This document shows positions 29,845 through 37,666 of a stretch of DNA of 64,000 bases, piece after piece (positions within the stretch are counted from its first letter, which is position 1; each line of letters begins with the position of its first letter). The notes under the pieces were generated by a model. It saw only the letters and a program-made list of their open reading frames with translations. It was not told the origin of the DNA and did no database searches. The DNA is from Asterochloris sp. CNOR1 (lineage: Eukaryota > Chlorophyta > Trebouxiophyceae > Trebouxiales > Trebouxiaceae), in contig OZ017746.1 in the NCBI GenBank assembly GCA_963969365.1, positions 2,108,001 through 2,172,000 of the forward strand, read 5' to 3'. A program made the translations under genes and the position numbers.

Positions 29845-30273
<429 letters not shown>

Positions 30274-30386: not shown

Positions 30387-31305
30387 ATGCACACTTGGGC
30401 AGCCTGGCTATGCACAGCAGGTGTAGCTGCAACTCTGCTTGCCAGCATCAGAGGAGCATGTCATGCAGGACTAGTGCGACAGGAGCTGGGAAGGAAGCTG
30501 ATGCATATCAGAGAGTGGCACATGCACGCTTGCCCCAATGCATGGTGCAGCAGAGATGACATCAGCTTCTGCTGTGCAGGTATGGGCACTACCTTCGTCA
30601 TGTGCTGGCCTTTGTTTGGTGACAGCTGGACAGCTGCCCTGGCAGCCGCCTCCATCCCATTCGCTGCAACCCTGCACTTTATTGCGGTGGGACTGGGCAT
30701 CACAAAGGATGCTGGCCTTGTGTCTGGGACTACGGTGCGGGTGCCTGCAGTGCATTGCTGGCTGAGGTGCCCCGCCAATGGAAGCCGTGTGTGCGTCCCT
30801 GCAGAGGAAGGGCCAGCGAGAGGAGCTTTTGGCTGGCCCCAGCCTCTATGGGGTCTCGATAACAATCTTGACGGTCTTGTACTGGCAGCGTCCGGCAGGC
30901 GTTGCTGCGGTGGCCTGCCTGTGCGTCGGGGATGGCTGTGCAGAGGTGGTAGGCCAAAGGCTTGGGAGGCACAAGCTTCCACACAATAAGAACAAGGTGA
31001 GGCTACTTCTGAACTGTGTCTTTTGCCTGAGCCTGTAGCTAATGGGTTTCACACTGCAAATGCAGAGCTATGAGGGCACAGCTGCCTGCTTTCTTGGTGG
31101 CTTGTTTGGGACTGCTGGCCTGCTGCTCTGCCTAGAAAGGCATGGTCTCCCCTCGGCGGCAGGGGCACCCATCTGGCTGGGAGCAGCTGCTGCTGCCGCT
31201 GCAGCGGGTGCAGTGGAGTCTTTCCCTCTGGGTGACTTCGACAATGCTATGGTTCCAGTTGCAGCAGCCATGGGCATGCACTTGCTGATGCCGGCTGTCA
31301 CCTAG
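30387..31305 (+). CDS. Phytol kinase-like membrane protein (VTE5/farnesol kinase family)
   Basis: Members phosphorylate free phytol or farnesol with CTP in plastid membranes and feed tocopherol and chlorophyll salvage. The sequence starts MHTWAAWLCTAGVAATLL and continues LVRQELGRKLMHI, the conserved RKL/MH motif after the first helix. Later exons give MGTTFVMCWPLFGDSWTA, a short linker RGELLAGPSLYGVSITIL, and the signature CVGDGCAEVVGQRLGRHK near 30930, which is the family's nucleotide-binding motif. The last exon reads SYEGTAACFLGGLFGTAG, then an Ala-rich helix and VESFPLGDFDNAMVP, ending in TAG at 31303-31305. About six hydrophobic helices are visible. I could not settle the splice between LMHI and MGTTFV. 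The substrate (phytol, farnesol or dolichol) cannot be decided here. Confidence 0.8.
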
Positions 31306-32131
31306 CTGAGCTGAACTGGTTGGCTAATTCCAAAACCCAACCCAGCTTGGCTTAAACCCAAGGACACTAACTTTTGAAGCTCTTCACCTCCTCCCTCATA
31401 TGTACACCTCCAGGGGCTGTGACTCAAAATCCAGTACTGCTGACCAGCTTGACGACTGCCGCCATGCAGGATGCATCCCTTTCAAGGCAGCAGCTGCATG
31501 AGGGCTACCTTCCTCCTTTCACAGGTGTCTCCCTAGCTCTGAAGGGCAGACAGCTGCTTGTCCAGAAGCAGCATTCCAAACAACTCTGCCATGCTGATGG
31601 CTGACACCCACCACAGTGCTGGGCACAGGTGCACAGGAGTGGGGGCTTGTCCATTCAAGGTCTCAACTAGCTAGATTTGAACTCTGCAATGCCGGCCAAG
31701 CCAGACTCTACAGCATGGCTGAGGCCTGCACAAAGTGGGGTGGAGTGACTCGCCTACCTCTCGTTAGTGCTTGCTGATGGCAGTTTCAGCTGAGGGTTGG
31801 TGGGCCATGCTGGGGGGGTCAGTGATCTTCGAAGACTAAATCTGCAAGCAGATGCTGACTAACCAAACCCCTCTCAGATTGATATTCCCCTCATACATTT
31901 GGTCCTGGCAATTTGGTCCGGTGGGTGCTGTGTGCTCCCTGCGAAGGGCATGCCTGATGAGGACAGGAGGCCGCCGCAGCAGAATACTAACTCAGCCCAT
32001 GGAGTTCAAAGAGCCGCTGTCTCAGGGCTTGAGACACTAGGAGCAGCCTGGCCTGCTGCAGGTTGGAGTCGCCATGCAGCAGTGAGTAGTGCACCACACT
32101 TGCCTTTGCTTGTCTGGGATCATGGCGGCAG
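31306..32131. other. Intergenic gap, no gene seen
   Basis: This separates the phytol-kinase stop from the homeodomain gene start. Short frames occur (for example near 31374-31604) but carry no recognisable motif or splice support. It may contain a 5' UTR exon of the homeodomain gene. Confidence 0.45.
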
Positions 32132-35100
32132 ATGCAGAAGTCTTCTGAATTCTGTCTGCAGGATGCCCTGTTCAGCAGCCTGGCCACAAGCAACTTGATG
32201 GACGCAGCAGACTTTGCTCAGTCCAACAGCCATGGGGAGGCGCTGATGGGCTTGTCATCAGTGGGGAGCCTGTTGCAGCAGCCCAACCCGCTGCAGCAGT
32301 TGCAGGCGCTGCAGGCACACCATCTGGTGCGGTGCACACTTGGCTGAGCTGGCACCATATCTGCATTGTCAAGTGCTCATCCTCCCACATGTCGACCTCT
32401 GTAGGAGGTAGCCAGCCACACTGTGTTCCTGCTTGCTTAAGATCTGCTCTCTGATTCTGTAGGCCCAGCTGACTAAACAAGTCAAGGACAGCGAGGGCCC
32501 CGCATCGCAATCCCTAGGGGCTTTCTCATCGCCTGATGGCCCTGCTCTGCAGCAACTGCTGCAGCAGCATCAGCACCAGCAGCAGAAGCACAACCAGCAC
32601 CAGCAGAGTGTGGCGCAGGCTGCGGCGGCAACCAGCCAGGCACAGCCCCAGGTCGTGCAGATGCCCAGGTAAGATATAAAAGTGGAAATCGTGGTTGGCT
32701 CTGCTCAAGTAGATGTCACTGATGTCAGCAGGGCTTGTATATCACGCCTATATTCGGCAGCGGAAGTCTTCTGGCAGCAGCGACGCTCACATTTGTGTGC
32801 TGTTGTGCATGAGTGACTGAGGCAGGCTGAAGAGTCTGCTCCTGCATGCGCTTGGCAGGCGCTTCTCGCTGCCATTGGGGAGCAAGCTGCAGCGTGCCTT
32901 CTTGGCGCGGCTGAGTGCTGATCTGAACCCCGCAAGAGTTCAGAAAGCTTGCCGACTCACAGATTTTCATCCTGAATCTGAGTTCCTTTTTAGTCATCGA
33001 GGGGGTGCATTAGCCTCCAAAGCTGCATGGCCGAGCTGCCATGCTGGCAGACGGCTTGAAGACTGTGCACACCTACCAGGGACACAACCTGGTGGTTGCT
33101 GTGCCAGACTGACCCCACTGCGCTGCAGGCCTCGCTGGAAGCCCAACCAAGTGCAGATCAGCCTGCTGGAGCAGCACTTTGGCTCAGGCAACTCCAAGCC
33201 CACCACAGAGCTGACAACCAACGTGCAGGCTGCTGGGGAGGCCACAGAGCAGCAGGTGAGGTTCAGGGCAGGCAGCGGTGGTTGTGATGTTGTGCTGTTG
33301 TGCTGTGGACGCGTCCTGGCTGCTGCTGCAGATTGCCAATCACCATCTCGCACAGCAGGAATGCCCTGCCCCTTGGTGCAGGTTGGGGTATGGCTGAAGA
33401 ACAGGCTGGCCAGGGCCAAGCGGGATGCCAAGGTGAGGATGTTGGTATGATGTGACACAGAGGGGCTGCATGCTGGAGTCCCCAGCCTGATATACACCTC
33501 CTGCAACCCAGTCTTTGTGCTCAGGCTGGTGCTGTTCCTGCAGATAATGGAGACACAACCTGCACCGCGCGAGGATGCCTCTGAGTGAGTCTGCCCTGCC
33601 ATGACCTGCCTGCCTCAGCCCTGCTGCTGCACCGGATTACCAAATGTCTGGGCAGCAGGTGGTCTGACATGGAGGTGCAGGGTTAGCCACCCCCAGTCAG
33701 CTGCTCCCTTCAAGTATTGCGCTCCCTGCGGAGCCTAGGAGTGCTGCGCTCCCTGCGGTGCAGGTCGTCACGCAAGCGATCCCGGGGAGCGGCAGGCGCA
33801 GAGAGCGAGCCCGAAGTCAGCGCGGATGATGTCGCTGCCACCTTTGAGGGCTTTCAGGGCGTCGCCTTTGGGTTGGTGAGCCTGGACGGCTGGGCTTGCC
33901 TGCACATGGCCCCCATCTGGGGCGCTGTGTGACTGCTGCATGGGTGCACACCACCGGGCTGTCATCCCCCTGCTGAGGCTTGTCTGCGCTCCTAGCGTAC
34001 CAGCAGTCGAGGATGGCTGTCTGACTCTCTGCTGTATGCTGTAACTGGTGCCAGATGCTGCAAGATCTGTTCCAGCCCAGCTTGGTGTTCCTCCTGCTCA
34101 GCACTCCCACAGCTTTGTGATCTGCACCTGAACTCGGCTTGCTGCCTGCCTCTTAGGCTCACGTGTCGTCTGCCCCCCCTGCAGCTGCGTGACTTGCACA
34201 TGGTTATGGAGGGCATCGATCCCACAGAGCAGGAGCAGGTGTGCAGCAGCATACGCAGCAGCAGCAAGCTGGCCGTGTTTGGGCATGGCATGGAGGGCAC
34301 CGTCCTGAAGACTTTTGCTAGGCAGCTGTGCGATATTGGCATCCAGGTGGGCTGAGCAGCAAACACTGAGGGGACACAGAAGGCAGCGGCCATGCTGCGG
34401 CTGCAGGACACAGTGTGTCTGCTGGTCATTCCCAAGGGGGTTAGGGAAGCAGCAGGCAGAGAACAGGCGGTTGCAATGTGGAATCTGGAGCCATCTGCAT
34501 TGCAGCTGCGCCGCCATGCACTGTGCCGCTTGACTGTTGGTGCCCAAGCCAAGCATGTACAGTTGGGTGGAGATGGCCTGTCTTGTCTGTGCTTCTTGGC
34601 ATGACCTGCCTGTGGCTGTCAGTATGCACTGCAAGATATGTGCCCTGCATCCTGCCCCCGCCTCCTGAGGAGTCCGTGCGCAGCAGGCAGCTTCACTGCG
34701 TGGCCTGGGTGCCCCACTCGTGGGACCCCGTGCCTGAGCCAGGTGCCCTGTCTGTGCAGGCGGCCTCCCTGGACGATGTGGCCTGCCCCTCTCTGGACCA
34801 GCTTGACCTGCTGCTGGTCAGCGCAGGCACAATGGTGCCCAGCGTCATCAGTGCTGCCTCAAGCGAGGCCAGGCGCGCTGGTGAGGCAGCACCCTGCCAG
34901 CAGCATTCTAGCCTCTCTGTGGATCGTGCAGCATGCAGGCTCTGAAAGTGCCTGACACTGTGAGGCTAAATTGCCAGTGAGGCAGCAGGCCACAGCACAG
35001 CACTGCGCTCCCAGCAGGTATGAGAGGCATTGAATTAGGCCTGAGAGCTGCGTGCTGCGTCTGCACTCCCATGTGTGCAAAGAAGCCGCCCACGCCTGTG

Positions 35101-35590
35101 CCCATGAGTGGTATGGGGACGGCTGCCTGCCGTGCCTGCAGGCGTGAAGGTCATCTGCTTCACAGCGCTGCAGCGCTCAGCAAGCCTGAGCTTTGCTGAC
35201 GCTGTGACGCACCTGCCGCTGACGCGTGGCTCCAGTGGGGAGCTTCTGGGCTGCAGCTACGAGCTGGCGCTGCAGCTGCTGCTGGAGACAGCCACAAGTA
35301 ACCTGAGGCGCATCCTGGAGGTGAGCTGGGCGCTGCATTGGAGGGCCTCCTGGGTGGCCCTCTCCTGTAGCCTGCCAGGCCGCCCTTTCCAGCATCCTGC
35401 AGGGGGCCTGAGGGCAATCCAGCTACCCAGGCTGTGGTCACATTGTCGCCAGCATGAACCTCCTTGCCTTGCCCTCTGGTCACTCTGTCCTGCTCTCTGG
35501 AACAGGGGAACGCAGCACAGGTGCCATCTGCAACCCTAAAAGCGCCTGTCTCTGTCTGTGCCGCAGCCCCAGCAGGAGGCGCAGGACTGA
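32132..35590 (+). CDS. Predicted homeodomain-SIS fusion protein
   Basis: Exons 32132-32326, 32463-32668, 33129-33255, 33382-33432, 33544-33584, 33764-33875 and 34185-34346 join in phase without a stop. The N-terminus is Gln/His-rich, like an activation region. The divergent homeodomain starts PRWKPNQVQISLLEQHFG and ends VGVWLKNRLARAKRDAK. It keeps helix-3 Trp and Asn but has Lys at position 50 and Leu at 53; spacing resembles WUSCHEL-type domains. After SSRKRSRGAAGAESEPE the frame runs GLLRDLHMVMEGIDPTEQ, KLAVFGHGMEGTVLKTF, DLLLVSAGTMVPSVISAA, GVKVICFTALQRSASLSF and LPLTRGSSGELLGCSYEL, a SIS fold like 6-phospho-3-hexuloisomerase. The last exon, PQQEAQD, stops at 35588-35590. One junction (34346 to about 34620) is unresolved. 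Two adjacent genes are the alternative: a homeodomain gene stopping at 33930-33932 and a SIS gene starting at a Met near 34200. Confidence 0.6.
33724..33763 (+). repeat. Short tandem duplication at a 3' splice site of the homeodomain gene
   Basis: GCGCTCCCTGCGG occurs twice, about 29 bp apart, ending at the CAG that precedes the exon start at 33764. This is another small duplication abutting a splice acceptor. Confidence 0.75.
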
Positions 35591-36484
35591 CTGCTGCCCG
35601 CGGTGGCGCGCTGCTCCCTCGCGCCATCGTCTGCAGTCGTTGCTGGGCCGCGCAGCACCCGGCCTCCAGTGCCAGGGGCTTGTGGCCAGCCAGGAGCACC
35701 ATCGTGGCGCCACGACCTGGGATGCACCTCAGTCTTGGACAATGATTGGCCGCAGCATAACTCATCAACTCCTTCAGAACAGCCTTCCCTCCACCCAGCA
35801 GCCCCACCTGCTGATGTCCGGCTGTGGCGCCTTTGGCACCACAGACACGACCCCGACGCTAGGCGTCCCGCGGCTCCACACTATAGACGCACTGCCTGTC
35901 AAGCAAGCTGGTGTGACCAGCCCGAGACAGAACCCCCCTCCCCCCCGGCTGCTGCTGCTGCAAGCTGGTGCTGCGCGCAACACACATATAGCTCAGCACC
36001 CAGTTCAGCAGCAGAAGTGTCCCCTTCCTAGTCCAGGCGATGGTGGCCAACTGCCAGCCACCTTAAGCACTCCTCCGAACGCTGCAACAGTACGAGAGCT
36101 GGTAGGCCTAAGTCCCTCTGGGTGCTGCTGAACGCTGTTCTCAATAGCTGAACAGGATGCGCAGCAGCTTTCAGTGTCTTTCTGGGTCGCAATATCTCAC
36201 AAACTGCCTGGCGTGAACCAGATGTGCAAGCAATCTGCGCTTTGCTGTTCGTGCCTGCAGCTTGTACAGTCTGTTTCGGGTGATGACATCTTGAAGCCAA
36301 TCTGTTCGACTTCATGGAGTCAACTGGACAGCAGGCCATCCTGGAAGCAGGAGTGAGCCCACATTGCATCTCGTCACCGTCTGTTTAACCTCACCCAAGT
36401 TCAGCTATGCATTCTGGTCCCCTTTTCTCCTTCTTGAACTCTAATGTTGGTTTTGTGACATGACACGTCTGGTTCAAGCTGGGG
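35591..36484. other. Gap with unproven open frames
   Basis: A long plus frame (35454-36131) overlaps the end of the SIS gene and continues here, but reads as Pro- and Gln-rich filler. A minus frame (to 35807) contains GGGKAVLKELMSYAAANH, which faintly resembles an acetyltransferase helix, but it has no supported partner exons. I therefore call no gene. The 3' UTRs of the two converging neighbours must lie here. Confidence 0.35.

Positions 36485-37666
<1,182 letters not shown>

What the first reader, a model, noticed from the sequence alone, without database searches (positions are those of the whole stretch)
32132..35590. Predicted fusion of a WUSCHEL-like homeodomain to a sugar-phosphate isomerase (SIS) domain
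Seen: seven exons join in consistent phase from a Gln-rich N-terminus through the homeodomain into KLAVFGHGMEG and later SIS motifs, with consensus donors. Knowledge: SIS domains bind phosphosugars, and bacterial regulators (RpiR, GlmR-like systems) pair DNA binding with SIS sensing. I know of no eukaryotic homeodomain protein built this way. Inference: a transcription factor that could sense sugar phosphates directly.
Basis: partly seen in the sequence, partly recalled or inferred. Interest (0 to 1): 0.75.

Follow-up and report, generated by a model that had tools for sequence, protein, structure and literature searches.

The report
Algal homeodomain–sugar-isomerase fusion gene (predicted)
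A green alga appears to carry one gene that joins a DNA-binding homeodomain to a domain related to a sugar-phosphate isomerase whose key motifs have changed, which would be an unusual metabolite-linked gene switch, but no transcript yet shows that the two halves are one protein.

Summary
The homeodomain is real (Pfam 27.4 bits, cut-off 22.9). It resembles WUSCHEL-type domains at its start but lacks their four-residue second-loop insert. The second half is a diverged 6-phospho-3-hexuloisomerase (HxlB) relative (58.4 bits, E 7.9e-16; equivalog cut-off 160); PF01380 (SIS) itself stays below its cut-off. GRSG and SGSGET are replaced by GMEG and AGTMVP; the Glu of (F/Y)E is kept. No other HxlB-like stretch was found in this 56.4 Mb genome.

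One polypeptide is favoured but unproven. A crude gene model trained without this gene recovers six exons exactly and prefers one gene by 10^4.4 or more. Five residues before the first in-frame ATG of exon 7 match the conserved first HxlB helix (3 of 2000 random stretches do as well), so exon 7 is probably spliced from upstream. Against: a weak intron 5 donor, a TGTAA (poly(A)-type) motif in intron 6, a model that over-merges, no relatives, no transcripts. Phosphosugar sensing is untested inference.

The parts
32132..32326 (+). exon 1, N-terminus (start codon uncertain; the model uses an acceptor at 32162 and splits the exon)
32463..32668 (+). exon 2, Gln/His-rich region
   Evidence: the model keeps its 3' end but starts it at 32553
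33129..33255 (+). exon 3, homeodomain first part (RPRWKPNQVQISLLEQHF...)
33382..33432 (+). exon 4, homeodomain helix 3 (VGVWLKNRLARAKR)
33544..33584 (+). exon 5, linker; followed by the weakest donor of the chain
33764..33875 (+). exon 6, basic/acidic linker (SSRKRSRG...), ends at the joint
   Evidence: its residues add no significant HxlB similarity
33876..34184 (+). intron 6, the joint between the two halves; holds a TGTAA at 34040-34044 and the stop reached if unspliced (33932)
34185..34346 (+). exon 7, first SIS exon (LRDLHMVMEGID...KLAVFGHGMEG...); first in-frame ATGs of this open frame at 34200 and 34206
34760..34880 (+). exon 8, SIS (DLLLVSAGTMVPS)
   Evidence: extends it upstream to 34687 and adds an exon 34407-34477
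35142..35320 (+). exon 9, SIS C-terminal part (LLGCSYELALQLLL)
35567..35590 (+). exon 10, last codons PQQEAQD and stop (uncertain; not chosen by the model)

Best explanation
One nuclear gene of a green alga encodes a roughly 400-residue protein: a Gln-rich, activation-domain-like N-terminus, a divergent homeodomain, a charged linker with a KRSR-type basic stretch, and a C-terminal domain related to 6-phospho-3-hexuloisomerase. The homeodomain probably binds DNA (W48 and N51 kept; inferred). The SIS-type half most likely serves as an oligomerisation and possibly ligand-binding module rather than as an enzyme, so the protein would work like a eukaryotic analogue of bacterial MurR/RpiR regulators. 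Shown here: the two domains, their order, the open splice chain, the altered motifs. Supported but not shown: that both are in one polypeptide. Inferred only: DNA binding, oligomerisation, and, least sure (about a third), response to a sugar phosphate. The confidence given is for one polypeptide with a regulatory SIS half, not for the sensing step.
For: Ten in-phase GT-AG exons. Homeodomain above Pfam's cut-off. HxlB-type half, E 7.9e-16, with PDB relatives YckF 1m3s and MJ1247 1jeo. A gene model trained on 180 kb of the same genome plus the window without 31301-36480 recovers E3-E7 and E9 exactly and the 3' ends of E1, E2 and E8, in one gene. Forcing an intergenic base at the joint costs 10^6.6, and at any of the positions tried every 25 nt in 33433-34200 at least 10^4.4; 6 of 34 sampled introns inside other predicted genes cost as much as the joint, median 10^5.5 (those genes were in the training set). 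Random 25-codon stretches placed before the first in-frame ATG of exon 7 reach the real HxlB score in 3 of 2000 trials, the signal lying in LRDLH; no ATG precedes it in its open frame, so exon 7 probably needs an upstream exon. No other HxlB-like stretch found in the genome (searched exon by exon, a lower bound).
Against: No transcript, protein or second species was available. The gene model is crude and over-merges: it also joins the upstream gene (from 30463), and a presumed real boundary at 32100 costs it 10^1.1. Intron 5's donor is weak. The only + strand TGTAA in 31-37 kb lies in intron 6; TGTAA is 2.8-fold commoner after predicted gene ends than in predicted introns (19 in 24.9 kb against 33 in 123.2 kb). 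Exon 6 adds no significant similarity to HxlB (648 of 2000 random stretches do as well). A 267-nt gap between same-strand genes is short but not unheard of (2 of 12 predicted gaps are 272 nt or less). Leu at homeodomain positions 49 and 53 is unusual and could weaken DNA binding (position roles recalled).
Confidence: 0.62

Rival explanations
1. Two separate neighbouring genes: a homeodomain gene that reads through the intron 6 donor to the stop at 33932 and is polyadenylated after the TGTAA at 34040, and a stand-alone HxlB-like gene starting at the ATG at 34200 or 34206.
For: TGTAA at 34040; its enrichment after predicted gene ends; same-strand gaps as short as 132 and 272 nt among 12 predicted ones; UGUAA is reported as the likely poly(A) motif of chlorophytes including trebouxiophyceans (PMC1868727, passages read).
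Against: Costs 10^6.6 in the gene model. An ATG-34200 start drops LRDLH, which matches the conserved HxlB helix (about 4.5 bits; 3 of 2000 random). Leaves the intron 6 splice pair as coincidence (about 6%). The SIS half itself has no TGTAA downstream as far as 37000.
Confidence: 0.15
2. A bicistronic mRNA, as known in green algae: homeodomain ORF ending at 33450 (intron 4 retained), then a SIS ORF starting at the ATG at 33547, 96 nt later.
For: Both ORFs are open in the forced parse; many green-algal inter-ORF regions are under 100 nt (PMC11291117, a preprint, passages read).
Against: Costs 10^8.6 in the gene model. The leaky-scanning mechanism in that paper goes with few upstream start codons; here 13 ATGs, the first ORF's own start included, precede 33547 on such an mRNA. 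Intron 4 has one of the best splice pairs of the gene (11.2 and 13.1 bits).
Confidence: 0.06
3. One gene with two products: polyadenylation at the TGTAA in intron 6 gives a homeodomain-only isoform (ending at 33932), splicing gives the homeodomain-SIS form, so the SIS module is a regulated option. (Overlaps with the best explanation.)
For: A good splice pair and a TGTAA lie in the same intron.
Against: A TGTAA in a 309-nt intron is expected by chance about 8% of the time (0.27 per kb), and no other signal supports it.
Confidence: 0.12
4. The fused protein is real but the SIS-type half is a structural remnant or still an isomerase, with no link between sugar phosphates and DNA binding. (Overlaps in part with the best explanation.)
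For: The Glu of (F/Y)E is kept, as an enzyme would need (recalled); the altered GMEG and AGTMVP motifs fit a remnant.
Against: Nothing tested here separates it from a sensor.
Confidence: 0.35

Closest known systems
6-phospho-3-hexuloisomerase (HxlB/PHI; TIGR03127; B. subtilis YckF 1m3s, M. jannaschii MJ1247 1jeo)
   Same: Sequence relative over most of the domain, including the LRDLH stretch of the first helix and the Glu of FE/YE.
   Different: 58.4 bits against an equivalog cut-off of 160; GRSG, RLM(H/Q) and SGSGET become GMEG, QLCD and AGTMVP; fused behind a homeodomain.
Plant sugar isomerase (SIS) family protein AT5G52190
   Same: From recall, a plant HxlB-like SIS protein; listed among bacteria-to-plant transfers in PMC11131428 (passages read).
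   Different: Not compared here: its sequence was in no tool I used. Recalled as a stand-alone protein.
WUSCHEL-related homeobox (WOX) proteins
   Same: RWxP...Q...LE start and first-loop length as in STENOFOLIA 6wig. A WOX protein is reported from Trebouxia arboricola (PMC6788696, passages read).
   Different: No four-residue second-loop insert, helix 3 VWLKNRLARAKR instead of YWFQNHKARER; no SIS domain known in the family (recalled).
Bacterial MurR/RpiR regulators (N-terminal helix-turn-helix plus SIS; plan recalled)
   Same: General plan: DNA-binding domain, then SIS domain.
   Different: The DNA-binding domain is a homeodomain, and the SIS part is closer to HxlB (58.4 bits) than to RpiR models (28.1 bits), so the likeness would be convergent.

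Membership tests
Homeodomain (PF00046) | Score above the curated cut-off over the full domain | tested here: met
   27.4 bits (25.0 in the full protein) against 22.9, profile 2-57 of 57
Homeodomain (PF00046) | Helix 3 core W48, F49, N51, R53 (numbering recalled) | tested here: inconclusive
   W and N kept, F49 and R53 are both Leu in the alignments
WOX / WUSCHEL | Extended homeodomain with a longer second loop | tested here: not met
   four residues shorter than STENOFOLIA there
WOX / WUSCHEL | WUS box (TLxLFP, recalled) outside the homeodomain | tested here: not met
   no TLxLFP and no LFP in the 405-aa model; ends of the model uncertain
SIS domain (PF01380) | Score above the curated cut-off | tested here: not met
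   14.1 bits against 25
HxlB / 6-phospho-3-hexuloisomerase (TIGR03127) | Sequence homology over the domain | tested here: met
   E 7.9e-16, profile 6-156 of 178
HxlB / 6-phospho-3-hexuloisomerase (TIGR03127) | Equivalog cut-off, and motifs GRSG and SGSGET | tested here: not met
   58.4 against 160 bits; GMEG and AGTMVP in those columns (four distinct bacterial sequences)
MurR/RpiR regulator | N-terminal RpiR helix-turn-helix (recalled) | tested here: not met
   in the full protein Pfam finds only the homeodomain above its cut-off
Metabolite-responsive transcription factor (what it would work like) | Ligand binding that alters DNA binding | not testable with these tools
   needs purified protein
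Single-gene fusion | One mRNA spans both domains | not testable with these tools
   no transcript data; indirect evidence

The most novel reading that the evidence does not exclude
A eukaryotic homeodomain transcription factor that carries its own sugar-phosphate sensor, made by capture of a hexuloisomerase-type gene, with a built-in switch: poly(A) choice inside intron 6 decides whether the cell makes the sensor-bearing or the sensor-less form.
Probability: 0.08. Interest if true: 0.85.

Novelty: new variant of a known kind. Interest (0 to 1): 0.5.

Why it matters
If one protein, it would join a homeodomain to a metabolic-enzyme fold, a plan recalled from bacterial RpiR-type regulators but, to my recall, not from eukaryotes. 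Searches of the held papers for homeodomain or homeobox together with SIS domain or sugar isomerase found none describing it (0 papers; 6 papers listed, none about such a protein by title; only the listing was seen). The library holds only open-licence papers, so absence there is weak. It would make it directly testable whether a eukaryotic homeodomain factor can read carbon status.

Tried and rejected
Relatives: peptide patterns of the 274-aa homeodomain-SIS part found none among bacterial and archaeal genomes (40 pattern stretches, 0 confirmed) or IMG/VR contigs (12 stretches, 0 confirmed). These are prokaryote and viral collections, so this does not bear on conservation among algae. PHROGs gave one weak match of unknown function (22.3 bits). 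A weak SIS-like hit on C7 (L013, E 0.05) falls in a citrate synthase gene (PF00285, 34.5 and 33.0 bits on two frames): a chance match. The PF01380 matches on C6 belong to a glutamine-fructose-6-phosphate transaminase (glmS models, 71.8 and 70.0 bits on two frames), not a competitor. TGTAA as a decisive 3'-end mark: not depleted in the window (31 seen, 34 expected), only modestly enriched after predicted ends, so kept as weak contrary evidence. That exon 6 encodes the beginning of the HxlB helix was tested and not supported; only LRDLH of exon 7 carries the signal. The cheapest forced split (33600, 10^4.4) rests on a 2-nt exon and is a model artefact. Homeobox_KN and NDX searches of the genome found nothing, but nothing rang in the controls either, so they show no absence. 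Papers: passages read of PMC6788696, PMC11131428, PMC9125323 (expression of AT5G52190 only), PMC1868727, PMC11291117; all others seen in search listings only.

Full report
What was checked. The region 32132-35590 was read and all frames listed. Joining exons at GT-AG sites gives ten exons in consistent phase and a 405-aa protein. The host genome has 56.4 Mb in 21 contigs, the window lying on C1. Its RbcL (L047) matches 8q04 and 1gk8 best among 61 Rubisco chains (1gk8 recalled as Chlamydomonas), so a green alga is likely right; the species was not determined.

The two domains. Pfam gives the homeodomain 27.4 bits (cut-off 22.9) and the second half only 14.1 bits for PF01380 (cut-off 25), below threshold. 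NCBIfam identifies the second half: 6-phospho-3-hexuloisomerase TIGR03127, 58.4 bits, E 7.9e-16, well below the equivalog cut-off of 160; the best MurR/RpiR model has 28.1 bits. PDB relatives are YckF, MJ1247, AF1796 and a hexulose-phosphate synthase chain. In an alignment with four distinct bacterial HxlB sequences, GRSG, RLM(H/Q) and SGSGET become GMEG, QLCD and AGTMVP, while the Glu of FE/YE stays. That these motifs form the active site is recalled; the one paper search on it found none (0 papers).

The homeodomain. Pairwise scores stand far above shuffles for STENOFOLIA (70 against 14.2, sd 5.4), HOP (78 against 12.4, sd 5.1) and Engrailed (58 against 13.6, sd 5.1), less so for the alga's other homeodomain on C5 (29 against 11.4, sd 5.1). 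The start RWKPNQVQISLLE resembles WOX, but the WOX loop insert is missing and position 53 is Leu as in HOP. I therefore call it a divergent homeodomain with some WOX-like features.

One gene or two. I trained a simple hidden Markov gene model on 18 stretches of 10 kb from the same genome plus the window without 31301-36480. It learned donors near [C/A]AG|GTG and acceptors TGCAG (T 91, G 95, C 98%). Applied to the held-out gene it recovers E3, E4, E5, E6, E7 and E9 exactly and the 3' ends of E1, E2 and E8, in one gene; it disagrees on the starts of E1, E2 and E8, splits E1, adds an exon at 34407-34477, and does not use E10. It is crude: it also merges the upstream gene, allows tiny exons, and one of its upstream joins makes a stop codon. 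Its likelihoods are a yardstick, not a proof. On that yardstick the cheapest intergenic base in intron 6 costs 10^6.6. The cheapest printed values elsewhere are 10^7.2 in intron 3 (inside the homeodomain), 10^6.1 in intron 7 and 10^4.3 in intron 8 (inside the SIS half), 10^3.5 in intron 2, 10^4.4 in intron 5, and 10^1.1 just upstream of the gene. Among 34 sampled introns of other predicted genes, all from the training loci, the median is 10^5.5, and 6 of 34 cost as much as the joint.

The reading of exon 7. In its open frame (33996-34355) the first ATGs are at 34200 and 34206, so a stand-alone SIS gene without a 5' exon would start there. The five codons before, LRDLH, match the conserved (I/L)xELH-type helix of HxlB; an ATG-34200 start loses about 4.5 bits. 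Replacing the 25 real residues before that ATG by 2000 random window translations reaches the real score 3 times. When only the 20 exon 6 residues are replaced, 648 of 2000 do as well. The evidence thus says that exon 7 is translated from upstream of its ATG and probably spliced to something; it does not by itself show that exon 6 is the partner. Exon 6 is the partner on splice grounds: the acceptor at 34185 is the only one above 4 bits in 33933-34215, and 33876 is the best donor in 33764-33932. By chance such a pair in a usable phase arises about 6% of the time.

Evidence against. Intron 5's donor scores only 2.5 bits; if it is not removed, the homeodomain reading ends at 33588. A TGTAA at 34040 is the only one on the + strand between 31 and 37 kb. 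UGUAA is the likely chlorophyte poly(A) motif in PMC1868727 (passages), and here it is 0.76 per kb in the 500 nt after predicted gene ends against 0.27 in predicted introns and 0.39 elsewhere outside genes. Bicistronic mRNAs occur in green algae (PMC11291117, passages), but 13 ATGs before the candidate second start do not fit the leaky-scanning pattern described there.

Genome context. No other HxlB-like SIS stretch was found (exon-by-exon search of the best candidates, a lower bound); the other SIS matches are a glmS-type gene. AT5G52190, a plant SIS protein, is listed among bacteria-to-plant transfers in PMC11131428 (passages); whether this gene is its orthologue was not tested.

Verdict. 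No description was found in the held open-licence library by searches.

Noticed in passing
window 36727-37635, minus strand: Convergent neighbour is an adenylate-kinase family gene (PF00406, 96.2 bits in one frame and 23.2 in the next), split by introns.
   Followed up: partly
window 29845-30141, minus strand: An open frame matches TMA7, a translation-machinery-associated protein (PF09072, 49.7 bits).
   Followed up: partly
window 30766-31305, plus strand: Upstream gene reads by eye like a membrane kinase of the phytol/dolichol-kinase type, but neither of two frames tested has a Pfam hit.
   Followed up: partly
own genome, 180 kb sample and window: Predicted splice acceptors are almost invariant TGCAG and donors favour GTG, an unusually strong acceptor consensus (from a self-trained model).
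   Followed up: partly
L001 (G000:C5:654968-655087, minus): The only homeodomain stretch that PF00046 finds in the genome exon by exon (38.3 bits); its intron seems to fall near the same place before helix 3 as in the window gene (by eye).
   Followed up: no
window 33256-33381: Intron 3 inside the homeodomain is 126 nt, a multiple of three without an in-frame stop, so a retained-intron form would stay open.
   Followed up: no
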